This document shows, in pieces, positions 3,446 to 59,685 of a stretch of 64,000 nucleotides of DNA. The number at the start of each line of letters is the position of its first letter. Position 1 is the first letter of the stretch. Both the position numbers and the translations under genes were made by a program. This DNA comes from Pomacea canaliculata (Eukaryota > Mollusca > Gastropoda > Architaenioglossa > Ampullariidae), in contig NC_037593.1 in the NCBI RefSeq assembly GCF_003073045.1, positions 9,167,525-9,231,524 on the forward strand, read 5' to 3'. The notes beneath the pieces are model-generated. The model was given only the letters and a program-made list of their open reading frames with translations, was not told the origin of the DNA and searched no databases.

Positions 3446-10512
<7,067 letters not shown>

Positions 10513-10715
10513 TGCCTTCTATCGGCAAATTATACAAACGCACTCCAGGAAGTCAAGCAGAGGAGGCGACCGGAACTTGTCAAACCTTCGTCACCACTGT
10601 TCTTGCGCGCTTGATCAATGCTGCCACGCATGCGCACAGATAACCTCGAAGTGATGCATAGGTCGTCGTCTGCTACGACGATTAAAGTTTGATCTGGTTT
10701 CCATTATCAAACGTA
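10513..10715. promoter_or_regulatory. bidirectional promoter interval between Rab35 and ABHD11
   Basis: Only 203 bp separate the two start codons, which point away from each other. The stretch is richer in CpG (for example gaggcgaccgg, tgcgcgcttg, cgtcgtctgctacgacg) than the flanking AT-rich DNA and shows no TATA box, as expected of a housekeeping bidirectional promoter. It must also hold both 5' UTRs unless non-coding exons exist elsewhere. Confidence 0.65.
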
Positions 10716-18229: not shown

Positions 18230-19745
18230 CATCAGCCGAAGCAAAATAATATAAAATAGTCACATCATCTGCAGCGCTGCTACCGTCCTTCCAGAGCATG
18301 CCGTTCCAGTTCCTGAAGCTCTCTAGCTCCTCGAGCTGTGCACCTGCCCGATGGTGTTCGCCCTGATTTCATTCTTGTCTGTGCTGATCTCCATCCCTAA
18401 TTCGCTAGCGCAACTTGTTTGTGAGACCATGCAACTCGCTGTTAACTCCTGCCATCGGTGTCATCTGCAAAGCGTAGGTGACATAGTGGCCTCCGTCAGA
18501 CAGATACAGAGGTGTGATGGTCTTGGAGTGTATCGCGCTTGATATTATCTAAAGATGCTGAACAGCACTGTTGCGAATACATGCCGTCGTCGGGAAGAGC
18601 TCTCCAAGCTGGTTCTGAAAGAGAAGTGAGCTCCTGAAACCCTTGTAGAATGATGATGATGATGATGATGATGATGATGTAGTTTTATAGCGCGCCAGTA
18701 TCCGCATCACAAAGATGCGCTCAATGCGCGGTGATCCCAGCAAATATATACACAAGCGTGAAAAACAGCTGGGGGAATTCTCTCGGGAGGTAAAATGGGC
18801 GAAGCGAAATTGTGAGAAGTTCAAGGTCACAAGTACACATCTTTTCACGAAGAATAACCGTTGTACAGTACCTGTTGTTGACATAGAAACACACTCCGCC
18901 GCCACGCGCCTTGCCAGTAACTGCAGCAGATCTATCAGATCTAAACGGGCCAGAGAAGCCAGCGATGTCTAGATCAGCGTCACCGTCGTGTAGCCATGTT
19001 TCCGTAAACGCCAACAAACAAGTATCCCTGTGCAATCGAAAGTTGTGTATCCACACCTCAAGCTCATCAATCTTGCCACGAATCGACTGGACATTGGAGA
19101 GCAGGATAGAAGGAAGAGGTGGAGATCTGCGTCGATCGTCCAGACGAAACTTCTTGAGTCTCCGCTTCACACCGCCTCTGCGTCCTCTCCTTCTTGATCT
19201 GCGAAGTGGAGGGAGCCATGCGATGTCGACTTGCAGCGCCCAAAAACTCCGGGTAACAGAGGGAGATGAACGAAGACGGAGCAAGAGCTCGCGGGAGTAG
19301 AGAAGCCGTGGACCAGCATGAAATAAGCTGACCGCCATCTTAATAATGTCGGCTAGTGGTAACGGCCACAGCCATCCAAAATGATAAACGCATGCCTAAC
19401 ACGATGAACGTAAAAATCATCATCACTAGACACAGACGCAACACCCTAAGTCTATAACTTGACAACTAACCTACACAGGGTGAGACGAAAGCGATGAAAA
19501 ATTGAAATAAATTTGAATCAGAAGTGAGAGCTGCAGACGTCGCACAGCTAGGAGCGGCCATCTTAGTTCAGCACAGTAATGCCTCAAGGGTTTGGAAGAG
19601 ACCCTTATCAATGTTGAATTTTCGCATCACATGGCAAAGCCTCATTCCAAACTCCGCCAAAAACCTTTTTGAAGTCGATAAAGTTATGAAAAAGATCCTA
19701 ACCAGATAGATGCTTTTCAATCAGGACACGACAGATAAAGATTCT
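18230..19745 (-). mobile_element. RTE-type LINE reverse-transcriptase relic, split by another insertion
   Basis: On the minus strand, scattered over several frames, are RTE-like reverse-transcriptase blocks in the correct order. From 19700 to 19560 there are RLQKGFWRSL, CHVMRKFNIDKGLFQ and TLEALLC. After an interruption come SSLLFQNQLGELFPTT (about 18620-18570), LQDHHTSVSV, HLRFADDTDG (the catalytic FADD block) and GMEISTDK (down to about 18370). These match the usual DFKKAFDRVW, LGEFF, DHHTSI, LRFADDID and YGMEI series. The relic has many stops and shifts and is a long-dead copy. Confidence 0.75.
18640..19545 (-). mobile_element. second LINE inserted into the RTE relic: endonuclease part joined to 3' tail
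   Basis: The minus-strand ORF from 19338 contains an apurinic-endonuclease (EEP) start typical of CR1/Rex1-like LINEs: an Arg-rich lead, ILLSNVQSIRGKIDELEVW, CLLAFTETWLHDGDADLD, GGVCFYVNNRYC. The reading ends near 18721 and runs directly into a LINE-like terminus (GCGCATTGAGCGCATCTTTG, then GCGCTATAAAACTA) and a (CAT)n tail at 18650-18680. The whole reverse transcriptase is missing, so the copy is internally deleted or a template switch. It interrupts the RTE relic between its LEALLC and LLFQNQLG blocks. Confidence 0.7.
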
Positions 19746-20770: not shown

Positions 20771-23700
20771 ATGATGAAAGAAACAGATTACTGCAATCAT
20801 GTTTTTGAAAATCACAATCATTTGAGCTCCAGTGAGAATGAAAATTGTTCATCAGACTGGCGAGAACATTTAAAACATGTTGAGGATTTACTACTGAAGC
20901 CAGAAGTAGTAAACACCAGGAAGAAAAGAGAATCATTCCAGGTACCACGATGTGATAACCAGTCCTCAGATTTTAGAGGAACCCGGGCCAACAATTTTGA
21001 ATATAACAAGAAGACACGTCATCAAAACAATTTTACTCCAAGTGAGATAAAATTTGTCGGACGTCATCAGAAACGTCATGTGATGGAAATGTCGTCACAA
21101 CCTGATGCAAAAGCTTGTGGTAAGACCCTTGACGTAGCTTCCGGTAAAGCTGAGATTTTACAAGATTTCTATGGGCAGCCTCAATTGAGTAATAAGGAAA
21201 ATGGTCGAGCCCGCCATAGAGGAAAGGAGAAAAAAATAAGGAATGAAGAGAAAGAAATAGGGCGTGAGGCGTCTCAAGATCTCTCAGGTCACCCTGAGGT
21301 AAATTATAGATATCAGAAAACAGTCGTCACAGGAACCAGAGGCGGCTTTGTGCATGTGTCAGGGAGTGACGGAGAGTTTAGAGGTACAAAGAAACACAGT
21401 TCACCTACTCCAGATGATCAGACCCAGAAGACTACATGCTCAGAACCAACAAGTAAGGACCCCCAGAAAACCAAGAGCAAGAAGCCACGTAGAAAACACA
21501 AAAAAGTTAGCATTGATGGAAAAGAAACAGAGCAAGGCATGTCTCAAACTCTAAGTGGCCCTGATGAGGACTTCAAACGTCCAACAGTCAAAACAGGAGG
21601 TAGAGAAGGTTTTGTTCCAATACCAGATAGTGGTAGAGAGTTCAGAAGCACAGACAGTTTCCACTCTACAGACGATCAGAGTCCCTCTCCTGAGTCTGCA
21701 ATACCAAAATCAACTACCAAGAACTCAGAGAAAACCGATCGTAAAAACTCTTCCAAGCGGAAAATAGAAAATCTGAAACGTTCTAAATTTTACCAAGAAA
21801 AAATATCAGGAGACAGAACTAAATTATTACAAGAAAACGAGTCCCTTCGTGTGGACATTCCTTTGTACGTTAAGATCCATGCACTATTTGATGGTATCGG
21901 CAAAGTTGAGGAGGTTCTGAACAAGAAATTAAAACCTGAAGGAGTCAGTGTTCGACCAGATGAAACAAACGTGAAGAAATTTAATTCGTGCACTTACTGC
22001 ACAATATACTGTCTAAACAAATATCTTGCCAAAAAGCTGGAAGAGTTCCTGTTAAAGGACAAGGATAAATTTACGCCCGCCATTGATTGCAGTTTTGTGG
22101 AATATGAAGAAACAAGCTGTAGACAAAGACGACTGGAAACAGGAAAAACAGAAAGGAACTTTCTAATAGCGCAAACACGATGCGAGTTGAATGCAAAAGC
22201 CGATGCAGTTCTTGCCAAACATGACCAGAACATGACAGCAATGAAAGAGAGCCTGAATAGTGCAAAGAAAAAACTTTCAAAAGATGTTAACTGCAAGCAA
22301 AAAGAAAGCGAAGTAGCTGTCTTGGAGGAAAGAATAGTAGAAATGGAAAGACAGAAGGCTGAGTTTATGAATTCTCGGACTGCTTTCGCCAAAAATTTGG
22401 AAAGTCTTCTTGAAGGAGATACATTTGAGAAAGAGAGGCGAGACCTACTGAAACAGTATGGCGTGGAATGCTGCCGACTGGAGAAGCCTCTTCCCATGTA
22501 TGCAAGGCGGAGAGACATTGTGGATCTAGTTGCCAATAACCAGGTATCCGTTATCCTGGGGGAGACTGGATCAGGCAAAAGTACGCAGATGGTCCAATAC
22601 CTCATGGAAGCAGGGTTCGCAAAGACAGGCTTCATAGCTTCCACGCAGCCTCGCAAGATTGCCGCCATCTCGCTCGCCATCCGCGTGGCAGAAGAACTTG
22701 CCTCCCAAACTGGAAAAGTGGTCGGCTACAAAGTAGGCAGCAAGTCTCGACATTGCAGCGATACCAAAATTATCTTCATGACGGACCTGACCTTGCTTAA
22801 CGAGTGTCTTAAAGATCCAGAATTTTCGCAGTATTCTTGCATATTAGTGGACGAGGCTCACGAGAGAAGCCTGTACACTGACCTCTTGCTGACCATGATT
22901 AAGAGATGCCTACCCCGGAGACCTGATTTACGGGTTGTTATTACTTCGGCAACCATTGACCCGGAGGTGTTTGTCGCTTTTTTTGGAAACTGCCCAGTTC
23001 TGACAGTCTCTGGGCGCACATACCCTGTGGAGGTCATCTGGCAAGATGACGTCGTAGAGGAGTACGCGTTTGACAATTATGTTGAAGAAGCTGCCAAGAA
23101 AGCCGTAGACATTCATCTGGGAAAGGAACCCGGCGACATTCTGGTGTTTCTCACGTCAATGGTGGAGACGGAGAAGTGCTGTAGGTTCTTTCAGCAGAAA
23201 ATGGGTCAAAGAAATGATTATAAGTGCTTTCAGCTACACGGAAAATTGCCACCAGACGAGCAGCGGGTAGTGTTTCAACCTCTTGGCAAGGACCAGAGAA
23301 AAATTATCTTTGCCACTAACTTTGCAGAAACATCCATCACCATTGATGGTATAAGGTTTGTAGTTGATACCGGGGTTGCCAAAGAGATGTCTTTTGATCC
23401 AAAAAAGAACATGAACTGTCTTGTTGTCAGTCCAGTCAGCAAAAGTTCCGCAGAGCAACGGAAAGGTCGCGCTGGTCGAACGGCTCCTGGTAAGTGCTAC
23501 AGGCTATATTCTAAACGCAGCTTCAGGGCCATGAAGCCAGCTAGCTTGCCAGAAATCCTAAGAACTCATGTAGGCCAGGCCATTTTGAAGCTGGCAGACT
23601 TTGGCATAGGTCCAGATATGTACGACTTTGTGGAGTCGCCAAGCGAAGATGCAATCACTCAGGCCCAGACTTCTCTCGTGCGCCTAGGTGCCTTGGCAAA

Positions 23701-25387
23701 AGATGGCACGATCACGGAAGAAGGCAAGTGGATTGCTAGGTTACCGTTTGATCCAAAACTGGGACTGCTGACGTCACTGGGCAAAAAATCCAACCTTCTG
23801 TTCGACTCTGTTGTTTTGTCTGCAGTCATGAACGCTGATGGCAACGTCTTCTATCGAGGAACGACTGCCGAGAAACAGGCAAAGCATGACAAAGCAAAGG
23901 TCAAGTTCAGTGAAAGTGGTGGTGATTGTTTAACCGCTTTAAGCGTGCTTAAGAAATGGTGGAGCATCCCCAAGAATCAGAAGAGTAAATGGTGCATGGA
24001 CAACAGCCTCAACAGCAAAGTCCTGAATGGCGTCAGCGAAACCGTTGCTGAAATCTTGCATACTTTAAAGAAGGAGGTAAACATTGAGGTTAGGCAGACA
24101 TTTTCAAATTCAGAGAACGCAGAAGATTTGCTAAGGAGAATGCTTTTCAAATGTTACTCTTCAAACCTTTGCCATTACCTTGGACTAGAGAGAGCAGGCT
24201 ACTTTGCAGCAGAGCTTTCAAGACAAGTTCATGTACATCCATCATCATGCATGAATGTTCTGGCTATGTCTCCAGAATGGGTTGTCTACAATCAGGTTTT
24301 AAAAACATCGAGGGACTTCATCACAGGTTTGACAGTAGTCGAGGAATCATGGCTTTATGACGACGACAACAGCCTCGGCTTTGAAGTGGAGGAAATCCGC
24401 AAGAAGAAAGTGACGAACATTTTCACACAGGCGGCGGGATCTCATGTTTTCTTCTCCCTGATAGGTCCTCACTATTGCAAGCTTGCAGAATACGAAGAAA
24501 TGGCTTCTTCAGAAGCCTCTACCGTTGTCGTTGTGGAAGCATCCAGGGAGAAAGGAGAGGTCAAAGTGTATTCAACAGGAGGCGATGTTTGCACTCTCGT
24601 CAATAGGCTGAAAGAGACTGCTGAAAAGTCCGCGCAAGAACTGGTCGACGAAGACATGGAACTTACTGTTGGAAAAGAGACATCCGGTCTACGTGTGATA
24701 CTTGGGCGTGGCGGAGAAGTCAAGGACCTGATGATGCCAGAAGAGAGCAGGAAAGTTTTCATCAGCAAGCCCTCAGATACAACATCAGAGGATAGTCTTA
24801 GAGCCAAATTTAGCGAAGTTGGAGAAATTAAATTTTGCAAAAAGTTCGACAGAGGAAAAAATTGGGGATTGTTGATTTTCCGAACGAGAGAAGAGGCCAA
24901 GATGGCGGAAGAGATGTCAAAGAACGACAAGTACGATGTCGCTAGAGTCGAATGGCGACCTGCAGTGAAATATCAAGCCAACCTGAAAGCTCGTCTAAAA
25001 TGGTGTCGCAGACCACTTAGTGGCACAGGATGTATCAGCGTGTCGCCGGCATACCTGGCCGATGTTTGTCGCCTGAAGTCATTTTATGTAGAAAATGATC
25101 TTGTGAAGATCAGACTAGACAAAAAAAAGGATGACTCTTTTTATATTTCTGACCTTAAGCCAAGCGCAACCAAGGAACTGGTAGAAGGCTGCTTGCTGCA
25201 TGCATTGGGTTTACCGCCTGACAAGAAAGGCATCGTGGAGGACACGTTTTTACATCGAAGGAATGTTGAAAAGACTAGCGAGAGGGAACGAAACAGGCTT
25301 CGGACAGAAATAAAGAACGCGTTTCAAGACCACTTGAAATTTTCAGACGTCGAGGTTAAAGTTAAGCCACCAAATGACAAAGACTAA
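20771..25387 (+). CDS. gene A: DEAH-box RNA helicase half of a helicase/RBR protein, ends at an in-frame TAA
   Basis: The 1538-codon ORF has no intron. Residues about 1-350 are polar and Lys-rich and hold two tandem degenerate repeats (about 167-247 and 258-335: GTRGGFVHVSGSDGEFRG against GGREGFVPIPDSGREFRS). Next come a conserved region with YVKIH and CTYC (about 365-450) and a coiled coil (about 460-550). The helicase core follows: P-loop GETGSGKSTQM (about 597), TQPRKIAA, DEAH (about 694), SATIDP (about 726), QRKGRAGRTAPGK (about 896), then the HA2 region LPEILRTHVGQAILKL. An RRM-like segment starts at KVFISKPSDTTSED (about 1327). This order is that of DEAH11/12-type helicase-RBR proteins, known in plants and, as I recall, many molluscs. 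Relative to gene B the ORF stops exactly before FTDPIEG. Two ATGs begin the ORF, and an in-frame TAG precedes them. A predicted product would lack the ligase unless the stop is bypassed. Confidence 0.85.
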   Translation: MMKETDYCNHVFENHNHLSSSENENCSSDWREHLKHVEDLLLKPEVVNTRKKRESFQVPRCDNQSSDFRGTRANNFEYNKKTRHQNNFTPSEIKFVGRHQKRHVMEMSSQPDAKACGKTLDVASGKAEILQDFYGQPQLSNKENGRARHRGKEKKIRNEEKEIGREASQDLSGHPEVNYRYQKTVVTGTRGGFVHVSGSDGEFRGTKKHSSPTPDDQTQKTTCSEPTSKDPQKTKSKKPRRKHKKVSIDGKETEQGMSQTLSGPDEDFKRPTVKTGGREGFVPIPDSGREFRSTDSFHSTDDQSPSPESAIPKSTTKNSEKTDRKNSSKRKIENLKRSKFYQEKISGDRTKLLQENESLRVDIPLYVKIHALFDGIGKVEEVLNKKLKPEGVSVRPDETNVKKFNSCTYCTIYCLNKYLAKKLEEFLLKDKDKFTPAIDCSFVEYEETSCRQRRLETGKTERNFLIAQTRCELNAKADAVLAKHDQNMTAMKESLNSAKKKLSKDVNCKQKESEVAVLEERIVEMERQKAEFMNSRTAFAKNLESLLEGDTFEKERRDLLKQYGVECCRLEKPLPMYARRRDIVDLVANNQVSVILGETGSGKSTQMVQYLMEAGFAKTGFIASTQPRKIAAISLAIRVAEELASQTGKVVGYKVGSKSRHCSDTKIIFMTDLTLLNECLKDPEFSQYSCILVDEAHERSLYTDLLLTMIKRCLPRRPDLRVVITSATIDPEVFVAFFGNCPVLTVSGRTYPVEVIWQDDVVEEYAFDNYVEEAAKKAVDIHLGKEPGDILVFLTSMVETEKCCRFFQQKMGQRNDYKCFQLHGKLPPDEQRVVFQPLGKDQRKIIFATNFAETSITIDGIRFVVDTGVAKEMSFDPKKNMNCLVVSPVSKSSAEQRKGRAGRTAPGKCYRLYSKRSFRAMKPASLPEILRTHVGQAILKLADFGIGPDMYDFVESPSEDAITQAQTSLVRLGALAKDGTITEEGKWIARLPFDPKLGLLTSLGKKSNLLFDSVVLSAVMNADGNVFYRGTTAEKQAKHDKAKVKFSESGGDCLTALSVLKKWWSIPKNQKSKWCMDNSLNSKVLNGVSETVAEILHTLKKEVNIEVRQTFSNSENAEDLLRRMLFKCYSSNLCHYLGLERAGYFAAELSRQVHVHPSSCMNVLAMSPEWVVYNQVLKTSRDFITGLTVVEESWLYDDDNSLGFEVEEIRKKKVTNIFTQAAGSHVFFSLIGPHYCKLAEYEEMASSEASTVVVVEASREKGEVKVYSTGGDVCTLVNRLKETAEKSAQELVDEDMELTVGKETSGLRVILGRGGEVKDLMMPEESRKVFISKPSDTTSEDSLRAKFSEVGEIKFCKKFDRGKNWGLLIFRTREEAKMAEEMSKNDKYDVARVEWRPAVKYQANLKARLKWCRRPLSGTGCISVSPAYLADVCRLKSFYVENDLVKIRLDKKKDDSFYISDLKPSATKELVEGCLLHALGLPPDKKGIVEDTFLHRRNVEKTSERERNRLRTEIKNAFQDHLKFSDVEVKVKPPNDKD

Positions 25388-26848
25388 TTTTTCTTTGCTG
25401 AAGCATTTTTTACGGATCCCATCGAAGGAGTCAGTGCGTGCACATCTTTAGGCAGACATTTTGAATTGATTGGTTCCCGTGTGGAGATTGTTCCGGACAT
25501 CTCTGCCAATCTTATCGTACAGAAGCGCATCGTAGATGTCTGTGGATCGGAAATAGATAAAGTGGTAGAAATGCTGTCAACCGATGAGATCAACGTTAAA
25601 CTGAGTCCACTGGGCAGCAGCAACATGGTGAAAGTGGCAGTGACAGCTTTCGACGTGGAGGGTGTGGTCCGAGCCAGGACCTGTCTGAACCAAGTCTTCA
25701 AAGGAGACGTGCTGCAGTGCTCGGCCACCCCCGTGCTGATGCACCTTCTGGCTCCAGCAGGCCGGGCGTTCCTGAGGCGGGCCGAGAAAGAAGTCGAGGC
25801 TTTTGTCAGCGTAGACAACAGACTTCGCACCGTCTCCGTGTATGGCAGCGAGTCTGCGTGCACGCGCATGAGGACAAAGATGAACGAGTACATTGAACAG
25901 CTGCTGACCGGAACTTCCGCCGAGGTGTGCCTGAAAGGCGCGGACAAGCCTCCAGGTCTCCTGAAGACCCTCATCATGCGGCACGGCGAGGACGCGGAAG
26001 GATTTCGCATTGTTGCTGGCTTGCGATCTGTCGTATTGGATTACAGGCGTCACGAGGTCAAGATGATCGGGTCAGTGGAGAGTGTGGAGACGGCCCAGAC
26101 CATGATCGACGAACTAGCAGAAGAAGTGCGTCAAAAGATGCGGCTTCCCAAACCAGAAGCAAGCTGCCCAGAGTGCGTAGCTTGCTTTTGCCCGATCGAG
26201 AAAGGCGATCTCTACCGGTTGGAGTACTGTGCACATCCCTACTGCCGCGACTGCATCAAGCGCCAGGTCAAAGTCGCTATTGCCGACCACAGCTTCCCCG
26301 TGCTGTGCAGCCAGGAGGGTTGTGAGCGGCCGCTGGTCTGGCGAGACTTCAAGAGCCTGGTTCACCGCGGAGCCTTCAGCTTCTCCACGCTCACTTCCGC
26401 CGCTCTCTCCTCTTTCACGATGATTCAGAGGAACGCTGTGCGGTTCTGCACGACCCCCGACTGCCCCATGGTGTACCGCGTGACCCCCGAGGAAGGAGCC
26501 GTGGTGTTCCAGTGTCCGGAGTGCAGTGTCCGGATCTGTAGCGCGTGCCACAGCCAGGCTCACGATGGCGTGACGTGCGCGATGCTGCGCAGCGCCAAGA
26601 ACCAGGAGGAGGACATAGAGAAGTGGGCCAGCCTCGACCCACACAGACGCAAGGCATGTCCCACTTGCAAGATGCCAATTGAGAAGATTGAAGGCTGCAA
26701 CAAGATGGTGTGTCAAGCATGCAAAACGATATTTTGCTGGCTCTGCAGGAAAGTTTATCCGTCTTATGAAACCTGCTACGCTCATCTCAAACGTAGGCAT
26801 GGAGGCTTTTGGAACAACGAGGCGGACCTCCTGTACAATGACAATTAG
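25388..26848 (+). CDS. gene A, second half: KH-like linker and RING-IBR-RING ligase in the same frame after the TAA
   Basis: Reading on in the same frame beyond TAA gives FFFAEAFFTDPIEGVSAC and then about 487 open codons. They align without gaps to the end of gene B. RING1 has CVACFCPIEKGDLYRLEYC, CAHPYC and CSQEGC; IBR has FCTTPDCPMVYR, CPECSVRICSACH; RING2 has CPTCKMPIEKIEGCNKMVC and CKTIFCWLC. The RING2 catalytic-type cysteine is present, but the following C-x-H histidine is Lys. The first in-frame ATG after the stop is in VVEMLSTDE near 25570, so independent translation would lose little. It may be read through, separately translated, or recently dead. The intact frame and codons argue that the break is young, or that this is a rare allele or sequencing error. 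Confidence 0.75.
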   Translation, partial: FFFAEAFFTDPIEGVSACTSLGRHFELIGSRVEIVPDISANLIVQKRIVDVCGSEIDKVVEMLSTDEINVKLSPLGSSNMVKVAVTAFDVEGVVRARTCLNQVFKGDVLQCSATPVLMHLLAPAGRAFLRRAEKEVEAFVSVDNRLRTVSVYGSESACTRMRTKMNEYIEQLLTGTSAEVCLKGADKPPGLLKTLIMRHGEDAEGFRIVAGLRSVVLDYRRHEVKMIGSVESVETAQTMIDELAEEVRQKMRLPKPEASCPECVACFCPIEKGDLYRLEYCAHPYCRDCIKRQVKVAIADHSFPVLCSQEGCERPLVWRDFKSLVHRGAFSFSTLTSAALSSFTMIQRNAVRFCTTPDCPMVYRVTPEEGAVVFQCPECSVRICSACHSQAHDGVTCAMLRSAKNQEEDIEKWASLDPHRRKACPTCKMPIEKIEGCNKMVCQACKTIFCWLCRKVYPSYETCYAHLKRRHGGFWNNEADLLYNDN

Positions 26849-31103: not shown

Positions 31104-34100
31104 TTAGAGTTCATTTTCACCAAAGATCCCCCCGTGTTCTATCGTAAGGTGCTCGTAACAGGCGCATTCTGACGCAAACTTTTTAGAACACATCCAACAA
31201 AAGGTGGTTTTGCACACGGTGCAGAACATCCTCCGGCATCCGCCAGTTTTCTCGATCGGCGTGTAACACCCAGGGCAAGGTTTACGTCGTGTCGGGTCCT
31301 GTCTGGCCCACAGTTCCACGTCCTGCCAGCCCTCCTTGTTGGCCCGCAAGATGGCGCACGTCATGCCGTCGTGCGCTTGCTGGTGGCAGGCGGTGCACAG
31401 TCGGACGCTGCAATCGGGGCAAACGAACACCTTGGCGTGCTCTTCGGCCGTCGTGCGGTACACCACGGGGCAGTCGGGCGTGACGCAGAATCGGGCGGCG
31501 CCTCCGCTACGCATCACGAACGCCGAGAGGGCAGCAGCGGTCAGCGCCGACATGTTGACGTCACCTCGACGGGTCAAGAAGGTCAGATCGCGTACGGCCA
31601 CCTCGCGCTCGCACCCCTCGCGTCCGCAGACAACAGGCAAGGAGCGAGTCGTGACGGCCACCGCCACCTGGTGCTTCAGGCAGTCCAGGCAGTAAGGATG
31701 AGCGCACAGCTCCAGGCGGTACAGCTCCTTGGCTTCAACGGGACACTGGCAGATCACGCAGTCGATGGTGTCTTCCTCATCATCTTTTCTCGACGACCTT
31801 TTCATCTTCTCGACAACTTTATTAACTATGTCGTGAGCTTTCTCGATACTTTCGGGTGATCCTGTCAGTCGCAGCTTGTGTTTTCGGTAGTCGACTGAGA
31901 CAACGAAGAGACCCGAGGAGGCTCGGAACCTGTCTAGATCCTCTCCGTACTCCATGAGAAGCGCCTTCAAGACACCTGCGGGCCTGTCTCCGCCCTTCAG
32001 TGTCATCTCTTCCACTGTACCACTCTGCACCAAGTCAAGGTAGTTGTTGACTTCAATGTAAACCTGGGTGCAGGCTGCCTCTGTGCCGTGTATAGCAATG
32101 GTTCCCAGACGACTGTCGACACTTATGTAAGTGCTCGTTTTATGTTGAGTTTCTCGCAGAAAACTAAGGCCCGCAGCATTCAATAGATGAGCAAGTGCAG
32201 GAGCTTTCCTGCAATCTAACACCTCGCCTTTGAAGATATCGCTGAGACATTTTCTTACTTTTACCATGTCCTCCACTTCAGAGGCCCTGATGTAGAAAAT
32301 GTGTTTGTCATTGTGCACCGGCTTTGACTTAATTTCTGCAAGACCAGAAAAGTGATTCAAGGCATCTTTCACCTTTGCGTCTGCTACTTTCAGTACCTGG
32401 TTTGGGACAGTCAGAGTAGCATATATTACAGGCACCACATCAACGGGCTGATCGTGAATGTAAAATTCTGTCTGAAGACGTTTGCACGCCTGTATTCCTT
32501 CAATGGGGTCGGTGAATACTGCTTCGCTCCCAAACATGACGGACGTCTCTTTGTGCGGCTTTTCGACAGAAACTTTCACCTGCGAAGTGCGAAGATAAGC
32601 TTGAAACGTTTTCTCGATTGTCATCTCGAGATCCCTGAGCTCAGCATCTGTCGTCTGGTATGGTTTCTGGCGAACGATTGTAACACGTTCGACAATCCCC
32701 TTCGTATTTTCATCATAGCCCAACTCGTGCAAAAGCGAACGTCTGAGCACGTCCTCGCTCAATGCTCTCGGTAATGAGGGGAAGTATAAGGAATTCTCCC
32801 GATTCCGTGCTGGCTTTATCGTGATGAGGTTACTGCCGACATAAAAGCAACTCTTCAGTAAGCACGTGGCATACTCAGCTGGCGAAATGGAGGCGTAGCC
32901 GAATCCGCTGGAAGGTCTGCGGCACCATTTGAGGCGAGCCTTGAAGTCTGCGTTCTGCTTCAGTGGACGTCGGCGTTCTAGCTCACCAGCATCAGCCTCG
33001 TTATCTCCGGTCTCTTTCGCGGCGTTGACAGCCTCTGCCACAGTTTTAAATATCAGGAAACCCCATTTCTCGCCCTCGACGAACTTTTTGCAAAGTCGGA
33101 TCTCGCCAAACTGCTGGAACTTTGCCAAGATATGTTCTTCCGTGCTGTTTTCTGTCACGCGATGAATGAAAACTTTTCGACTTTCATCAGGCATCAGTAG
33201 CTCAACCACCTTTCCTCCAGTCCCAAGAACAACTCGAAGATTAGATTCTTCTTTGCCGACCGGCTGCTCGGTGTCTTCACGTGCAAGCTCTCGTGCCGAC
33301 CGCTCCACTCTCTCCTTCACCAGTTTCACGAGACGCTCGTTCGCTTTTTCTGTAGAGAAAACTTTCACTTCTTTTACTTCACGACTAGCTTCTACCACCA
33401 CAACAGAGAAGTTGCCTTGGCTACTCCCCAAATCTTCATACTCTCTTAGCCGGCAAAAGCGAGGACCTACCATCGAGAAGAAGGCATGAGATCCTGCCGC
33501 CTGTGTGAACACATTCATCACTTTTTTCTTACGGATGTCTTCAACATCGAGGCCGACATTTTCTACAGCGACATCAGCAAGCCACGATTCGTCGACTGGC
33601 GTGACTCCTGTGATGAAATCTCTCGATGTTTTAATCAGCTGCTCGTAAACGACCCATTCAGGGTTGCTAGCTAAGGAGGTCAGACAAGACGAAGGATGCA
33701 CGTGAACTTGCCTTGAAACACGCGCGGCAAAGTATCCGGCCTTCTCCATGCCTAAATAGTGACACAGGTTGCCAATATAACACTCAAAAATCATATGTCT
33801 CAGGCAGTTTTCTGTTGTTTCTTTGTCAGAAAACTCATTGGCTACTTCCAGATTGTACTCTTTTTTAAGAGTCTTGATTATTTCATTTGCCATGTCCCTG
33901 GTGGATCTCATGGCTTTAGCATTGATGCTGTTGGCAACACACCATCTGTTTTTTTCTTTTTCAGGCACATGTTGCCATTCCTTGTACACGGCTAAGGAGG
34001 TCAGGCAATCTCCAGTGGTCTGGCTGAATCTGGTTTTAGATTTATCATGCTGCTCCTGTTCCTTGGTGGTGTTACCCCTGTAGAAAACACTCCCGAAGTT

Positions 34101-36197
34101 CGTTAAGGCAGCAAGGACAATAGAATCGAACAAAAGACCATTCGCTTTGCCTTTCAATGTCATCAGCCCCAACCGTGGGTCCAAGGGAAGTTTTGCAATC
34201 CAACGCCCCTCTTCCGTGATTCGGTGGTTTGTAGACAAAGCTCCCAGCTGCACCAGCGACTCCAAGGCAGCTTCAATGGCTTCTTGGCTAGGGGACTGAA
34301 CGAAGTCGTACATATCCGGTCCAACTCCCAACTCTGCAAGTTTAAGGAGAGCCTGTCCCAGATGAGTTCTAAGGATTTCCGGAAGAGTGATTTTGTCCAT
34401 GGCATTATAACTGTATTTAGAGTACAGACGATAGCATTTTCCCGGCGCAGTGCGACCTGCTCTCCCCTTCCTCTGTTCCGCCGAGCTCTGACTGACCACG
34501 GTCACGCTTAGGCAGTTGCTGTTTTTCTTGGCATCATATCGCATCTCCTTGGCAACACCGGTGTCTACCACATACTTGATCCCGTCAATCGTGATAGAAG
34601 TCTCAGCACAGTTCGTGGCAAACACTATCTTACGTTTGTTTTTACCCAGAGGCTCGAAAACCTTCTGCTGTTCATCAGCCTGAAGCTGGCCGTGTAGCTG
34701 AAAGCACTGGAAGTCGTTCCGTCCTGCCAAACTCTGCTGAAAAGCCTCACAGCATTTCTCTGTTTCCAAGGGCGACGTGAGAAACACAAGAATGTCTCCG
34801 AGCGCTTCCTTCAAATGGATCTCCTCCGCCTTCTTCACGGCCTTCTGCATGTAGTTTTCAAACTCGTCTTCTTCGTTATTGTCATCTAGCCAAACTACAT
34901 CCACTGGAAATGTGCGACCCGAAACTTTCAGGACCGGGCAGTTGCCGAAGAACTTTACAAATACTTCTGGGTCGATCGTTGCCGAGGTGATGATCACCCT
35001 GAGTTCCGGTCTCTTTTGCAGACACCGCTTGATCATGCCCAGCAACAGATCGGTGTACAGGCTTCTTTCGTGTGCTTCGTCTACAACTATGCAAGAAAAG
35101 GCTTTCAAGGTGGGGTCTGCAAGGCACTCGTTTAGCAGACAGTGATCGGTCATAAATATAACCTTGGTCAAATCCCCGGTCCTACATTTGCTGCCGACTT
35201 TGTACCCGACCTCTTTACCTACATTGGTCGCCAGTTCTGATGACACATGCGTCGCCAAGGAGATGGCGGCAACCTTGCGCGGTTGGGTGCACACGATAGC
35301 ACCCTTGTTGCAGAAGTCTGCCTCTAGAAGATACTGCACCATCTGAGTACTTTTCCCAGAACCTGTTTCACCGAGGATCACGGACACTTGGTTACTTCTC
35401 ACAAGATCGACGATGTCCCGACGTCTGGCATACATTGGGAGAGACTTTTCAAACCGACAGCATTCAATGCCAAACTGCTTGCGAGCTTCATTTACCGTTT
35501 TCTCAAAATTAGTGCCGTTTAGAGCAGTTGCCACACGTTTTCTAAACTCATCCACAGCACCACAAAACTCTTCCTTTTGTCTGATGTTCTCATCTACTTT
35601 AGCTTCCAGAGCTGAAATCTCAGCTTTAGTCTGTGTGGCTGTGTAAAGGTTGTTTAATTTACCTTTAGCCTGGTCAATCTGAAGCATAATAGCTTGCAAT
35701 TTCTCTTCATGGACTTTTAAAGCTCTTGTAGACTTTTTTTCCAGCTCAAACTGTGCTTGCTGTCTAAGTTCCTCTTTACGCTGTTCTGCTCGACTTTGTA
35801 AGACCTCGCTCTGGTCAAATCCTGTAAAGTTGCAGTCAATGAGAGGTGTAAACATGTGCCGATCCTTCAGCAGTAGATGTTTCAATCTCTTGGCAAGATC
35901 TTTACTTGGACAGATCACACTGCAGTATGTGCAGGTGTCTGATCTCATGACATCCTTTTTAAGAAGCGAAAGCTGAAATCCCTCCAGGTTTACCTTTGTT
36001 GTGAGGACTTGCTCCAGCAGTGCCACATCCTGAATTAAATCATGGATTTTGACATAAAGTTCAGTCGTTTTGGTCTTTGGTTTTTTCCACAACTCTTTCT
36101 GGCTGTCTCTATGGTCTGCTGACCTACTAACATGATTTCTTCTTGGTATTGGCTGACAAGATTGACCACAAGGATTCTGATTTACTTCTTCCTTCAT
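31104..36197 (-). CDS. gene B: intact DEAH-box helicase / RING-IBR-RING E3 ligase fusion, 1697 aa
   Basis: One uninterrupted ORF on the minus strand. Domains by residue: an N-terminal conserved module with LYVKIH and CTYC (about 46-125), a coiled coil (about 130-235), and the helicase core with P-loop GETGSGKSTQM (about 275), DEAH (about 372), SATIDP, and QRKGRAGRTAPGK (about 573). Then come HA2/OB-type segments, an RRM-like region (KVFIHRVTENSTEEH, about 1005), a KH-like linker, and RBR: RING1 CVICQCPVEAKELY (about 1478), IBR FCVTPDCPVVYR, RING2 CPGCYTPIEKTGGCRRMFC (about 1637-1668). It probably binds RNA, uses ATP and transfers ubiquitin through a RING2 cysteine thioester. The His usual two residues after that cysteine is Arg. 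It lacks the 320-residue N-terminal extension of gene A. The start is fixed by an in-frame TGA 12 nt upstream and an acceptor TATTTTCAG just before it. Confidence 0.93.
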   Translation of the reverse strand: MKEEVNQNPCGQSCQPIPRRNHVSRSADHRDSQKELWKKPKTKTTELYVKIHDLIQDVALLEQVLTTKVNLEGFQLSLLKKDVMRSDTCTYCSVICPSKDLAKRLKHLLLKDRHMFTPLIDCNFTGFDQSEVLQSRAEQRKEELRQQAQFELEKKSTRALKVHEEKLQAIMLQIDQAKGKLNNLYTATQTKAEISALEAKVDENIRQKEEFCGAVDEFRKRVATALNGTNFEKTVNEARKQFGIECCRFEKSLPMYARRRDIVDLVRSNQVSVILGETGSGKSTQMVQYLLEADFCNKGAIVCTQPRKVAAISLATHVSSELATNVGKEVGYKVGSKCRTGDLTKVIFMTDHCLLNECLADPTLKAFSCIVVDEAHERSLYTDLLLGMIKRCLQKRPELRVIITSATIDPEVFVKFFGNCPVLKVSGRTFPVDVVWLDDNNEEDEFENYMQKAVKKAEEIHLKEALGDILVFLTSPLETEKCCEAFQQSLAGRNDFQCFQLHGQLQADEQQKVFEPLGKNKRKIVFATNCAETSITIDGIKYVVDTGVAKEMRYDAKKNSNCLSVTVVSQSSAEQRKGRAGRTAPGKCYRLYSKYSYNAMDKITLPEILRTHLGQALLKLAELGVGPDMYDFVQSPSQEAIEAALESLVQLGALSTNHRITEEGRWIAKLPLDPRLGLMTLKGKANGLLFDSIVLAALTNFGSVFYRGNTTKEQEQHDKSKTRFSQTTGDCLTSLAVYKEWQHVPEKEKNRWCVANSINAKAMRSTRDMANEIIKTLKKEYNLEVANEFSDKETTENCLRHMIFECYIGNLCHYLGMEKAGYFAARVSRQVHVHPSSCLTSLASNPEWVVYEQLIKTSRDFITGVTPVDESWLADVAVENVGLDVEDIRKKKVMNVFTQAAGSHAFFSMVGPRFCRLREYEDLGSSQGNFSVVVVEASREVKEVKVFSTEKANERLVKLVKERVERSARELAREDTEQPVGKEESNLRVVLGTGGKVVELLMPDESRKVFIHRVTENSTEEHILAKFQQFGEIRLCKKFVEGEKWGFLIFKTVAEAVNAAKETGDNEADAGELERRRPLKQNADFKARLKWCRRPSSGFGYASISPAEYATCLLKSCFYVGSNLITIKPARNRENSLYFPSLPRALSEDVLRRSLLHELGYDENTKGIVERVTIVRQKPYQTTDAELRDLEMTIEKTFQAYLRTSQVKVSVEKPHKETSVMFGSEAVFTDPIEGIQACKRLQTEFYIHDQPVDVVPVIYATLTVPNQVLKVADAKVKDALNHFSGLAEIKSKPVHNDKHIFYIRASEVEDMVKVRKCLSDIFKGEVLDCRKAPALAHLLNAAGLSFLRETQHKTSTYISVDSRLGTIAIHGTEAACTQVYIEVNNYLDLVQSGTVEEMTLKGGDRPAGVLKALLMEYGEDLDRFRASSGLFVVSVDYRKHKLRLTGSPESIEKAHDIVNKVVEKMKRSSRKDDEEDTIDCVICQCPVEAKELYRLELCAHPYCLDCLKHQVAVAVTTRSLPVVCGREGCEREVAVRDLTFLTRRGDVNMSALTAAALSAFVMRSGGAARFCVTPDCPVVYRTTAEEHAKVFVCPDCSVRLCTACHQQAHDGMTCAILRANKEGWQDVELWARQDPTRRKPCPGCYTPIEKTGGCRRMFCTVCKTTFCWMCSKKFASECACYEHLTIEHGGIFGENEL

Positions 36198-41721: not shown

Positions 41722-42165
41722 AAGAAGCACGCACTTATCACAGAAAGAAAAGACAGAAACGGGAAACAAACACAAGTTAAATAGACATGACATGATTTTG
41801 TTTCGCTAAAACCCTTATGAGGATACCACACAACAACAATTTTCTTTCAATGGGAAACAAAAGTGAATTAGGGATTGTTTACAAGTCCTTTATTTTACAA
41901 GAGCATAAGCTGTAATAATAAATCCAATATATATGATTTCATTGTAAGACATAAACTAACTGCTGCTACATGCTGCAAAAAGGTCCAGTCACTTTTCTAC
42001 AGCTTCAGCGGACATCTAAACAAATTATCTTCAGCTTACACAAAGTTCGTGTATTTCAGCCTCCACCTAAAAAAATCACTGGTGCAGAGGGGTTTCTCTT
42101 TCAACATATCCGCTGTCACGATGGCCCAGACCTGTTCAGACAGACGTGCCCCACGCTAATGGCGC

Positions 42166-43520
42166 AAAAGGCGGGGTGGGTGGGTCGGCACCAGCTTTAC
42201 CACTGGGATGGAGCACCACCCCGGCTGCAAGGCGGGGTGGGTGGGTCGGCACCAGCTTTACCACTGGGATGGAGCACCACCGGCTGCAAGGCGGGGTGGG
42301 TGGGTCGGCACCAGCTGGGATGGAGCACCACCCCGGCTGCAAGGCGGGGTGGGTGGGTCGGCACCAGCTTTACCACTGGGATGGAGCACCACCCCGGCTG
42401 CAAGGCGGGGTGGGTGGGTCGGCACCAGCTTTACCACTGGGATGGAGCACCACCCCGGCTGCAAGGCGGGGTGGGTGGGTCGGCACCAGCTTTACCACTG
42501 GGATGGAGCACCACCCCGGCTGCAAGGCGGGGTGGGTGGGTCGGCACCAGCTTTACCACTGGGATGGAGCACCACCCCGGCTGCAAGGCGGGGTGGGTGG
42601 GTCGGCACCAGCTTTACCACTGGGATGGAGCACCACCCGGCTGCAAGGCGGGGTGGGTGGGTCGGCACCAGCTTTACCACTGGGATGGAGCACCACCCCG
42701 GCTGCAAGGCGGGGTGGGTGGGTCGGCACCAGCTTTACCACTGGGATGGAGCACCACCCCGGCTGCAAGGCGGGGTGGGTGGGTCGGCACCAGCTTTACC
42801 ACTGGGATGGAGCACCACCCCGGCTGCAAGGCGGGGTGGGTGGGTCGGCACCAGCTTTACCACTGGGATGGAGCACCACCCCGGCTGCAAGGCGGGGTGG
42901 GTGGGTCGGCACCAGCTTTACCACTGGGATGGAGCACCACCCCGGCTGCAAGGCGGGGTGGGTGGGTCGGCACCAGCTTTACCACTGGGATGGAGCACCA
43001 CCCCGGCTGCAAGGCGGGGTGGGTGGGTCGGCACCAGCTTTACCACTGGGATGGAGCACCACCCCGGCTGCAAGGCGGGGTGGGTGGGTCGGCACCAGCT
43101 TTACCACTGGGATGGAGCACCACCCCGGCTGCAAGGCGGGGTGGGTGGGTCGGCACCAGCTTTACCACTGGGATGGAGCACCACCCCGGCTGCAAGGCGG
43201 GGTGGGTGGGTCGGCACCAGCTTTACCACTGGGATGGAGCACCACCCCGGCTGCAAGGCGGGTGGGTGGGTCGGCACCAGCTTTACCACTGGGATGGAGC
43301 ACCACCCCGGCTGCAAGGCGGGGTGGGTGGGTCGGCACCAGCTTTACCACTGGGATGGAGCACCACCCCGGCTGCAAGGCGGGTGGGTGGGTCGGCACCA
43401 GCTTTTGGGATGGAGCACCACCCCGGCTGCAAGGCGGGGTGGGTGGGTCGGCACCAGCTTTACCACTGGGATGGAGCACCACCCCGGCTGCAAGGCGGGG
43501 TGGGTGGGTCGGCACCAGCT
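42166..43520. repeat. 61-bp tandem satellite, about 22 units
   Basis: The unit contains GGCGGGGTGGGTGGGTCGGC, ACCAGCTTTACCACTGGGAT and GGAGCACCACCCCGGCTGCA in sequence. Most units are identical; variants are single-base losses in CCCC or GGGG and shortened units near 42310 and 43400 that lack TTTACCAC. The G-run cluster could form a G-quadruplex. Because 61 is not a multiple of three, each frame cycles through all phases without a stop, which creates long false ORFs. Confidence 0.97.
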
Positions 43521-45792
43521 TTGTTGGCTGTTGTTGGCTGTTGTTGGCTGTTGTTGGCTGTTGTTGGCTGTTGTTGGCTGTTGTTGGCTGTTGTTGGCTG
43601 TTGTTGGCTGTTGTTGGCTGTTGTTGGCTGTTGTTGGCTGTTGTTGGCTGTTGTTGGCTGTTGTTGGCTGTTGTTGGCTGTTGTTGGCTGTTGTTGGCTG
43701 TTGTTGCTGTTGTTGGCTGTTGTTGGCTGTTGTTGGCTGTTGTTGGCTGTTGTTGGCTGTTGTTGGCTGTTGTTGCTGTTGTTGGCTGTTGTTGGCTGTT
43801 GTTGGCTGTTGTTGGCTGTTGTTGGCTGTTGTTGGCTGTTGTTGTGTGTTGGCTGTTGTTGGCTGTTGTTGGCTGTTGTTGGCTGTTGTTGGCTGTTGTT
43901 GGCTGTTGTTGGCTGTTGTTGGCTGTTGTTGGCTGTTGTTGGCTGTTGTTGGCTGTTGTTGGCTGTTGTTGGCTGTTGTTGGCTGTTGTTGGCTGTTGTT
44001 GGCTGTTGTTGGCTGTTGTTGGCTGTTGTTGGCTGTTGTTGGCTGTTGTTGGCTGTTGTTGGCTGTTGTTGGCTGTTGTTGGCTGTTGTTGGCTGTTGTT
44101 GGCTGTTGTTGGCTGTTGTTGGCTGTTGTTGGCTGTTGTTGGCTGTTGTTGGCTGTTGTTGGCTGTTGTTGGCTGTTGTTGGCTGTTGTTGGCTGTTGTT
44201 GGCTGTTGTTGGCTGTTGTTGGCTGTTGTTGGCTGTTGTTGGCTGTTGTTGGCTGTTGTTGGCTGTTGTTGGCTGTTGTTGGCTGTTGTTGGCTGTTGTT
44301 GGCTGTTGTTGGCTGTTGTTGGCTGTTGTTGGCTGTTGTTGGCTGTTGTTGGCTGTTGTTGGCTGTTGTTGGCTGTTGTTGGCTGTTGTTGGCTGTTGTT
44401 GGCTGTTGTTGGCTGTTGTTGGCTGTTGTTGGCTGTTGTTGGCTGTTGTTGGCTGTTGTTGGCTGTTGTTGGCTGTTGTTGGCTGTTGTTGGCTGTTGTT
44501 GGCTGTTGTTGGCTGTTGTTGGCTGTTGTTGGCTGTTGTTGGCTGTTGTTGGCTGTTGTTGGCTGTTGTTGGCTGTTGTTGGCTGTTGTTGGCTGTTGTT
44601 GGCTGTTGTTGGCTGTTGTTGGCTGTTGTTGGCTGTTGTTGGCTGTTGTTGGCTGTTGTTGGCTGTTGTTGGCTGTTGTTGGCTGTTGTTGGCTGTTGTT
44701 GGCTGTTGTTGGCTGTTGTTGGCTGTTGTTGGCTGTTGTTGGCTGTTGTTGGCTGTTGTTGGCTGTTGTTGGCTGTTGTTGGCTGTTGTTGGCTGTTGTT
44801 GGCTGTTGTTGGCTGTTGTTGGCTGTTGTTGGCTGTTGTTGGCTGTTGTTGGCTGTTGTTGGCTGTTGTTGGCTGTTGTTGGCTGTTGTTGGCTGTTGTT
44901 GGCTGTTGTTGGCTGTTGTTGGCTGTTGTTGGCTGTTGTTGGCTGTTGTTGGCTGTTGTTGGCTGTTGTTGGCTGTTGTTGGCTGTTGTTTGGCTGTTGT
45001 TGGCTGTTGTTGGCTGTTGTTGGCTGTTGTTGGCTGTTGTTGGCTGTTGTTGGCTGTTGTTGGCTGTTGTTGGCTGTTGTTGGCTGTTGTTGGCTGTTGT
45101 TGGCTGTTGTTGGCTGTTGTTGGCTGTTGTTGGCTGTTGTTGGCTGTTGTTGGCTGTTGTTGGCTGTTGTTGGCTGTTGTTGGCTGTTGTTGGCTGTTGT
45201 TGGCTGTTGTTGGCTGTTGTTGGCTGTTGTTGGCTGTTGTTGGCTGTTGTTGGCTGTTGTTGGCTGTTGTTGGCTGTTGTTGGCTGTTGTTGGCTGTTGT
45301 TGGCTGTTGTTGGCTGTTGTTGGCTGTTGTTGGCTGTTGTTGGCTGTTGTTGGCTGTTGTTGGCTGTTGTTGGCTGTTGTTGGCTGTTGTTGGCTGTTGT
45401 TGGCTGTTGTTGGCTGTTGTTGGCTGTTGTTGGCTGTTGTTGGCTGTTGTTGGCTGTTGTTGGCTGTTGTTGGCTGTTGTTGGCTGTTGTTGGCTGTTGT
45501 TGGCTGTTGTTGGCTGTTGTTGGCTGTTGTTGGCTGTTGTTGGCTGTTGTTGGCTGTTGTTGGCTGTTGTTGGCTGTTGTTGGCTGTTGTTGGCTGTTGT
45601 TGGCTGTTGTTGGCTGTTGTTGGCTGTTGTTGGCTGTTGTTGGCTGTTGTTCGCTGTTGTTGGCTGTTGTTGGCTGTTGTTGCTGTTGTTGGCTGTTGGC
45701 TGTTGGCTGTTGGGCTGTTGTTGGCTGTTGTTGGCTGTTGGCTGTTGGCTGTTGGCTGTTGGCTGTTGGCTGTTGGCTGTTGCTGTTGGCGT
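43521..45792. repeat. 10-bp tandem array TTGTTGGCTG, about 220 units
   Basis: The array is nearly perfect over 2.2 kb, with rare slips (about 43705, 43775, 43845, 44990, one C at 45652). It changes to 7-bp GGCTGTT units at its right end (45690-45790). All three plus frames give the same cyclic peptide (LLAVVGCCWL) and the minus frame gives QQPTTANNS; these are not genes. It abuts the 61-bp array directly after CACCAGCTTT. Confidence 0.98.
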
Positions 45793-46449
45793 TCTGTTGT
45801 GTTTACAACAAGCTACTGCAACAACAAAGAACAACCAGCAACAACCAATTAACAATCCTCATCAACATTAACCAACAACCATCATCAATCAATACTCATT
45901 AACGTTTATCATCATCAATGATTAACAACAATCATCATCAATCATCAACATCCATCAACAACTATCAATAATTAGCATCAACAATAAATAACCGCCGCCA
46001 CCATCAATCAACAACACTCATCACTCATCACCTTTAATCATCAACATTCGTCAACAACGACCATCAACAATTTTTAATAACCACCAAGAACAACCACCAA
46101 ATAAACAAGCATCAACAGCAATCACTCATCAACATCAATTACCATCATAAACATTACTCATCATCATCATCATCATCGATTATCAACATCAACCATCAGC
46201 AACGACCATCAACAACTTTCAATAACCACCAACAACAACCACCATCAATCAACAGCAACCATCATCATCAACAACAACCATCAACAACTTTTAATAACCA
46301 CAAACAACCACCACCATCAATTAACAACACTCAACACTCATCACCATTAATCATCAACAACGATCAACAACTTTCAATAACCACCATCAACAACGACCAT
46401 CAACAACTTTCAATAACCACCAACAACAACCACCACCAATCAACAACTA

Positions 46450-56923: not shown

Positions 56924-57085
56924 TTCATTTAATTCGCTGTCACGAACCTGGTCTCTCGTCAGGGCTGTGTACTGAGGATGGAGATGTGACACAAAAGTTT
57001 TGTACTTACTGTTGTGATTCATGCTCGTGAATATTTCACATTCTTATTTAATTGTGTAATTTATTAATATTCTCCATTAAATGTG
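56924..57085 (-). repeat. copy of vWA gene 1 intron sequence
   Basis: It aligns by eye with 53848-54035, which lies in the vWA gene 1 intron next to the first vWA exon. Shared blocks are TTTAATTC(G/A)CTGTCACGAA, GGCTGTGTAC/GACTGTGTAC, GATGGAGAT, GTACTTACTGTTGTGATTCA and TTTATTA(T/A)TATTCTC. The similarity stops where the exon would start. It is either a relic of a third vWA gene or a dispersed repeat. Confidence 0.6.
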
Positions 57086-59224: not shown

Positions 59225-59412
59225 ACCTCGCTTTTCGCGGAGTAAGCCTTTAATTAGGGGTGGTGCCTGGCTCCTCTCCCTCGCTGCCTTAACTGCACCA
59301 GCACTCTATGGAGTCAGGCACCCGTTCTCAACAGCTAAGTCGCTGGGAGAAGCTACACGGGTATCGAACCATCAGACGCCAACGCTCTAACCACTCAGTT
59401 ATCCGCTTCGCT
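59225..59412 (-). mobile_element. tRNA-derived SINE on the minus strand
   Basis: Minus-strand reading starts GCGAAGCGGATAACTGAGTG, with an A-box-like GATAACTGAGTGGTTAGAGCG region and the B box GGTTCGATACC. The body has GAGAAGCTTCTCC-like and CAGCGAGGGAGAGG parts. The tRNA-like head differs from the SINE at 16.1 kb, so it is a different SINE family. Confidence 0.7.
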
Positions 59413-59685
59413 TGCGTTCATACGCCCCATGTATGTTTAGATAGAATGACTACAAAACCTTTTAGACAACGCTTGTTTAAGATTATATCTATTGTTAATC
59501 CAATCTGTTAATAGGAGTAACTTCAAGACTTATCCGTTGACTACGAAAACAGCACATGTGGCAGTTTTGTTGTATGTCAGCACCATCGTGGACATTCTCA
59601 ATATATTAAAATTAGTAGAGGGTTACTTGTGTTGGAGACTGAGTTTCTAAGACTCGAGTCTGGAGAGGGTGTAAGGTTTTCGTAC

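What the first reader, a model, noticed from the sequence alone, without database searches (positions are those of the whole stretch)
25370..25430. A single in-frame TAA separates the helicase and the ubiquitin-ligase halves of gene A
The frame is open for 1538 codons before and about 487 codons after the TAA, and alignment to gene B is gap-free across it (KPPNDKD*FFFAEAFFTDPIEG against KPHKETSV then MFGSEAVFTDPIEG). The stop replaces a Val codon. If every copy and transcript has it, A makes a ligase-free helicase that could compete with B, or the ligase half is translated from a later ATG, or the stop is recoded or edited. A recent null allele or sequencing error would look the same. No short intron fits: donors nearby would leave an intron of about 40 nt.
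Basis: partly seen in the sequence, partly recalled or inferred. Interest (0 to 1): 0.8.

Follow-up and report, generated by a model that had tools for sequence, protein, structure and literature searches.

The report
Nonsense codon in helicase-ligase gene copy
One of two neighbouring animal genes for a helicase fused to a ubiquitin ligase carries a single stop codon in the middle, most likely a recent loss-of-function mutation (or a base error in the assembly) rather than a new way of decoding genes.

Summary
Gene A (20771-26848, +) encodes a DEAH helicase joined to a KH/RBR ubiquitin ligase. It has one in-frame TAA at 25385-25387, with 1538 open codons before it and 486 after. Paralogue B (31104-36197, -) is uninterrupted there. 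Both halves of A keep the marks of selected protein: the ligase half has no second lesion and shares 28 Cys/His columns with B. A and B are saturated at synonymous sites, so this shows only that any loss is recent: in neutral simulations the ligase half stays lesion-free in 6.7% of runs at 0.06 substitutions per site. UAA followed by U is a poor readthrough context and no stable RNA structure follows. A single frameshift does not reach the ligase frame. A-to-I editing would need both adenosines. No frame-keeping GT-AG intron under 114 nt was found. The stop appears to cut an RRM-like unit just before a strand (weak models), against a tidy split into two proteins. Best reading: a young nonsense allele; next, an assembly error. 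No orthologue, read or transcript was available, so recoding, splicing or a functional split stays open.

The parts
20771..25387 (+). Gene A, helicase half: 1538-codon ORF ending in the TAA
   Evidence: Pfam Helicase_C, OB_NTP_bind, DEAD
22520..22963 (+). DEAD/DEAH domain of A; GETGSGKST at aa 597 and DEAH at aa 694 intact
   Evidence: (aa 584-731)
23111..23482 (+). Helicase_C domain of A; QRKGRAGR at aa 896 intact
   Evidence: (aa 781-904)
24131..24355 (+). OB_NTP_bind domain of A
   Evidence: aa 1121-1195
25118..25540 (+). RRM-like unit (approximate limits) that the stop interrupts, by homology to B; weak inference
   Evidence: order of secondary structure in low-confidence models of B; RRM/UHM titles in 28 of 50 Foldseek rows shown, best E 0.012; no Pfam hit on this unit
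25385..25387 (+). The in-frame TAA, followed by TTT
25382..25403 (+). Acceptor-like sequence (branch-like CTAAT containing the TAA, pyrimidine tract, AG)
   Evidence: only such site in A by my criteria, 0.73 expected by chance per A length
25388..26848 (+). Gene A, ligase half: 486 open codons with KH and RBR domains
25571..25573 (+). First in-frame ATG after the stop (61 codons downstream), context GTAGAAATGC
25625..25627 (+). Second in-frame ATG, strong Kozak-like context (A at -3, G at +4)
25922..26125 (+). KH_DEAH11 domain of A
   Evidence: P0002 aa 179-246
26174..26845 (+). RBR (RING1-IBR-RING2) region of A to the end of the protein
   Evidence: aligned to ARIH2; 28 Cys/His columns shared with B
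31104..36197 (-). Gene B, uninterrupted paralogue, 1697 aa

Best explanation
Gene A is a second, old copy of an animal helicase-RBR gene that acquired a nonsense codon recently, probably by a point substitution in a weakly conserved stretch. The helicase half can still be translated. The ligase half is no longer made, or the gene is at the start of decay. The stop may be polymorphic or fixed. Shown: the stop, the uninterrupted paralogue, the lack of other lesions, the ancient A-B split. Inferred: that the substitution is real, recent, and not bypassed.
For: One lesion only in 2024 sense codons. A and B are saturated at synonymous sites (ML dS about 5-6 where it is estimable), while neutral simulation leaves the ligase half lesion-free in 6.7% of runs at 0.06 substitutions per site without indels and in 3.7% at 0.02 with 0.1 indels per substitution; for the helicase half 2.3% at 0.02 without indels (the indel rates are assumed). 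Selection on the ligase half since the A-B split: lnL gain over omega=1 of 106.5. In A, the KH_DEAH11 score on like-for-like segments is 68.8 bits against 68.2 in B, and the RBR scores 58.4 bits against ARIH2 where B scores 52.6. Poor readthrough context (and passages of PMC4132726, and PMC5100048). The stop appears to cut a folded unit (weak). Base rate: PMC5100048 (passages) uses an estimate of 17 recent nonsense mutations in D. melanogaster that mimic readthrough, and excludes stops restricted to close relatives for this reason. Helicase RBR genes have been lost in multiple animal lineages and are called 'often dispensable' (PMC2904391, passages).
Against: No second allele, orthologue, read or transcript was seen, so 'recent' is a bound from lack of lesions, and continued selection on an expressed ligase half would give the same bound. 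A sequencing error predicts the same sequence. The helicase half is also intact, so if the whole gene is dead it died very recently.
Confidence: 0.62

Rival explanations
1. Assembly or sequencing error: the genome has a sense codon at 25385-25387 and gene A is a normal helicase-RBR gene.
For: A single isolated stop in an otherwise clean 6-kb frame. PMC5100048 (passage) subtracts sequencing errors as a source of such false signals.
Against: The frame is kept, so a single-base indel, the usual long-read error (recalled), cannot be the cause. A pair of compensating indels gains no support: the best frame excursion over the stop, scored against B, gains 6, which 205 of 404 control sites matched for local identity reach or exceed (584 of 1455 among all controls).
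Confidence: 0.15
2. Functional fission: A makes a stable ligase-free helicase, and the ligase half is translated on its own from ATG 25571 or 25625 (internal promoter, or a second transcript).
For: Both halves are lesion-free (bounds neutral decay). ATG 25625 has a strong Kozak-like context, and both KH domains and the RBR lie downstream of it. GC3 is higher in the ligase half than in the helicase half (0.67 against 0.48), although B shows the same trend (0.61 against 0.51).
Against: The most conserved of ten 20-codon blocks between codons 1440 and 1639 (12 of 20 identical to B) is 1540-1559, after the stop and before any in-frame ATG. Codons 1540-1600 favour omega below 1 (0.14; lnL gain 7.1 over omega=1). 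An old fission should have let this stretch decay. The stop appears to cut an RRM-like unit (weak). Reinitiation after a 1538-codon ORF is unlikely (recalled).
Confidence: 0.09
3. Recoding: ribosomes read through UAA, or the mRNA is edited, so that full-length A is made.
For: The frame continues at once in the same register with a conserved stretch.
Against: Passages of PMC4132726: the four genes with efficient readthrough have UGA-CUAG, and UAA in place of UGA lowered it about 6-fold in one of them (OPRL1). [quoted passage not shown] Here the context is UAA-U. The 101 nt from the stop fold less stably than shuffles (z +1.28, 187 of 200 shuffles at least as stable). One frameshift meets stops in the other frames within about 20 codons. 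A-to-I editing of one A leaves UGA or UAG. A change of the whole code is unlikely: A, B and the neighbouring gene fragments read by the standard code.
Confidence: 0.06
4. The TAA belongs to a 3' splice site (branch-like CTAAT, pyrimidine tract, AG at 25403) used by some transcripts, which would join an upstream part of A in frame to the ligase half.
For: It is the only site of that form in A by my criteria; none in B. A TAA placed at each of 1890 codons of A gives such a site within 30 nt in 5. The highest-scoring donor-like site of A (23490, 8 of 9 matches) is in frame with it, 1914 nt upstream.
Against: The criteria were set after seeing the sequence. 0.73 such acceptors and 2.33 such donors are expected per gene length by chance, and one donor in three is in frame. 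The nearest donors (43 and 49 nt) break the frame. A 1914-nt intron would remove the OB domain and sequence under purifying selection (codons 1231-1538: lnL gain 54.0).
Confidence: 0.05

Closest known systems
Helicase subfamily of RBR ubiquitin ligases (Plant I/Helicase of Marin 2010; plant DEAH11/DEAH12; animal genes annotated 'DEAH12')
   Same: DEAH helicase core with OB domain, KH_DEAH11 domain and RBR in one frame. Passages of PMC2904391 describe the subfamily, its presence in plants and animals and its repeated loss. Passages of PMC8765752 use a DEAH12 helicase gene as a single-copy nuclear marker in clams.
   Different: Here two old copies lie 4.3 kb apart, tail to tail, and copy A is interrupted by TAA.
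Recent nonsense mutation / young pseudogene allele
   Same: One stop, an otherwise intact frame, downstream coding signature; named in PMC5100048 as the main false positive in readthrough searches.
   Different: Allele frequency and age cannot be seen here.
Metazoan stop-codon readthrough genes (UGA-CUA type)
   Same: Open frame with a coding signature after the first stop.
   Different: UAA-U instead of UGA-C; no structure; no evidence that the stop is conserved; 486-codon second ORF with catalytic domains.

Membership tests
Helicase-RBR ubiquitin ligase (DEAH11/12-like) | DEAH helicase core with Helicase_C and OB_NTP_bind | tested here: met
   A and B pass Pfam cut-offs for DEAD, Helicase_C and OB_NTP_bind
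Helicase-RBR ubiquitin ligase (DEAH11/12-like) | KH_DEAH11 domain | tested here: met
   A ligase half 68.4 bits, B 63.1, cut-off 27
Helicase-RBR ubiquitin ligase (DEAH11/12-like) | RING1-IBR-RING2 with its Cys/His ligands | tested here: met
   IBR and IBR_1 in A; aligned to ARIH1/ARIH2 over RING1-IBR-RING2; 28 Cys/His columns shared, 4 in A only, 3 in B only. That the Cys of 'EGCNKM' is the catalytic one is recalled from ARIH1
Helicase-RBR ubiquitin ligase (DEAH11/12-like) | Helicase and RBR in one uninterrupted frame | tested here: not met
   A has TAA at 25385-25387; B meets it
Programmed stop-codon readthrough gene | Leaky stop context (UGA-C, UGA-CUAG, or CARYYA after the stop) | tested here: not met
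   UAA UUU UUC; passages of PMC4132726 and PMC5100048
Programmed stop-codon readthrough gene | Stop codon conserved in related species | not testable with these tools
   No relative found in two scans each of viral contigs and genome contigs; no eukaryote collection and no own genome held
Recent nonsense allele / young pseudogene | Open, selected frame after the stop, no or few further lesions | tested here: met
Recent nonsense allele / young pseudogene | Sense codon in other alleles or orthologues | not testable with these tools
   No reads or orthologues

The most novel reading that the evidence does not exclude
The UAA is a maintained feature of gene A. The gene yields a ligase-free helicase as the main product, and the KH-RBR half is made separately or by regulated bypass (downstream start, readthrough, or a spliced form using the acceptor-like site at 25403), so that the two activities of a helicase-ligase are set independently while B supplies the fused form.
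Probability: 0.12. Interest if true: 0.6.

Novelty: new member of a known kind. Interest (0 to 1): 0.25.

Why it matters
If the stop is a real allele, it is one more case of loss in a family already described as often lost in animals, and a natural ligase-minus form of a poorly studied helicase-ligase beside an uninterrupted copy, useful for asking whether the ligase is needed for the helicase's role. If the stop were conserved and bypassed, a UAA with 486 codons of catalytic protein behind it would be unusual for animal recoding. The evidence here favours the ordinary reading.

Tried and rejected
Search of the window's own genome: none held. Two scans of viral contigs and two of genome contigs with A-B alignments found no relative. 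PHROGs: no match for either half. dN/dS between A and B cannot date the stop because synonymous sites are saturated. Three of the likelihood gains in my first run (145.0, 33.7, 95.4) came from incomplete optimisation; the re-run with several starts gives 54.0, 7.1 and 66.8, and I use those. Compensating indels: no support. RNA structure after the stop: none. Single frameshift: closed in the other frames. Short introns: none that keeps the frame below 114 nt, for donors 25001-25385 and acceptors 25388-25700. Longer spliced forms: at chance level. B's RING2 scores better than A's against a parkin RING2 chain (30.1 against 19.3 bits, 9c5e_A), so A is not better than B everywhere. The RRM-like reading is therefore weak. 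Paper searches on bivalve stop polymorphisms and on helicase-RBR genes in molluscs gave listings from which nothing was used. No search was made for a printed report of this very gene: the species is unknown to me.
Full report
What is there. Gene A (+ strand) has an ATG at 20771 and 1538 open codons to a TAA at 25385-25387. The same frame goes on for 486 codons to the stop that ends at 26848. The first part is a DEAH helicase (DEAD, Helicase_C and OB_NTP_bind above Pfam's cut-offs); the second carries KH_DEAH11, IBR and IBR_1. On the other strand, gene B (31104-36197) encodes 1697 aa with both parts in one frame. tblastn found A and B as the only copies in the window. This is the Helicase subfamily of RBR ubiquitin ligases; passages of PMC2904391 describe it and say that it has been lost in multiple animal lineages. 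The window is a eukaryote's: it holds exons of a Ras-family gene and of vWA genes. No genome for it is held, and I could not name the species.

Alignment at the stop. My alignment pairs the TAA with Val of B and puts a one-codon gap 7 codons before it; MAFFT pairs it with the Ser before that Val and puts a gap just after. Val codons are at least two changes from TAA. So the claim of a replaced Val is not secure, though the frame and the homology on both sides are.

Both halves were selected until recently. With several starts, the codon model prefers omega below 1 over omega = 1 by 272.0 lnL units for the helicase half and 106.5 for the ligase half. Synonymous sites are saturated, so this speaks of the long A-B history and not of the time since the stop. 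The better clock is the lack of further lesions: in neutral simulation the ligase half stays clean in 6.7% of runs at 0.06 substitutions per site without indels, and in 3.7% at 0.02 with 0.1 indels per substitution; the helicase half stays clean in 2.3% at 0.02 without indels. The ligase half has either been free of selection for a short time only, or is still selected. In its RBR, 28 Cys/His columns are shared with B, 4 are in A only and 3 in B only. A scores higher than B against ARIH2 (58.4, 52.6 bits) and lower against a parkin RING2 chain (19.3, 30.1 bits).

Ways round the stop. Readthrough: the stop is UAA followed by U, and the RNA after it folds less well than shuffles (z +1.28). In passages of PMC4132726 efficient mammalian readthrough goes with UGA-CUAG, and UAA cut it about 6-fold in one gene; PMC5100048 finds readthrough more easily lost at TAA and TAG. 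Frameshift: the other frames close soon after the stop. Compensating indels: no better than control sites (205 of 404 matched controls reach the observed gain). Editing: A-to-I must change both A's. Splicing: no frame-keeping GT-AG intron under 114 nt in the range tested. The TAA does lie in an acceptor-like sequence, CTAAT-TTTTCTTTGCTGAAG, the only such site in A; a TAA placed at other codons gives one in 5 of 1890 cases. But I chose the criteria after seeing it, 0.73 such sites are expected per gene length, the nearest donors break the frame, and the best donor (23490) is one of 2.33 expected by chance and would cost the OB domain. A separate start: in-frame ATGs lie at 25571 and 25625, but the block most like B (12 of 20 codons, the highest of ten blocks) is right after the stop and before them.

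Where the stop falls in the protein. In the models of B the order of elements around the stop is strand, helix, strand, inserted helix and strand, then (stop position) strand, helix, strand, as in an RRM with an insertion. The Foldseek rows for the shorter model name RRM, RNA-binding or UHM domains in 28 of the 50 shown, but with no E-value at or below 0.001, and Pfam finds nothing on this unit while it finds RRM_1 just below its cut-off in the unit before it (19.9 bits, cut-off 20.7). If this weak inference holds, the stop cuts a fold, and neither half would be a clean protein.

Verdict. A young nonsense allele in an old second copy is the simplest account (0.62), an assembly error next (0.15). 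PMC5100048 (passages) treats exactly these two as the main false signals of readthrough in single genomes and uses an estimate of 17 recent nonsense mutations for D. melanogaster. A functional split (0.09), recoding (0.06) and a spliced form (0.05) remain open for lack of transcripts and orthologues. The correction of three likelihood gains weakened the case against the functional split slightly; it did not change the order of the explanations.

Noticed in passing
window 42168-45740: A 61-bp minisatellite (22.5 copies, 42168-43522) abuts a 10-bp TTGTTGGCTG satellite (222 copies, 43521-45740); the long ORFs listed at 41970-45902 are made of these repeats.
   Followed up: no
window 51077-62694, minus strand: A row of vWA-domain exons (5 of 6 tested ORFs hit Pfam VWA at E 0.01 or better, one of them below its cut-off), looking like one or more vWA-repeat genes; 142-bp copies at 51794-51935 and 60974-61115 are 92% alike.
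   Followed up: partly
window 5420-10518, minus strand: Exons of a small GTPase: Pfam Ras hit at 5420-5779, and a reading frame at 10159-10518 that starts [18 protein letters not shown], which recalls Rab35 (from memory; no Pfam hit).
   Followed up: partly
window 18721-19395, minus strand: ORF with the look of a non-LTR retrotransposon endonuclease ('LSNVQSIRGKIDELEVW', 'FTETWL', from memory), about 1.4 kb upstream of gene A; no Pfam hit.
   Followed up: no
window 20771-26848 and 31104-36197: In both A and B the ligase half has higher GC3 than the helicase half (0.67/0.48 and 0.61/0.51), and neither coding frame needs an intron over 5 to 6 kb.
   Followed up: no
window 20771-21862: A has about 364 N-terminal residues, rich in charged and Ser/Thr residues, without counterpart in B.
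   Followed up: no
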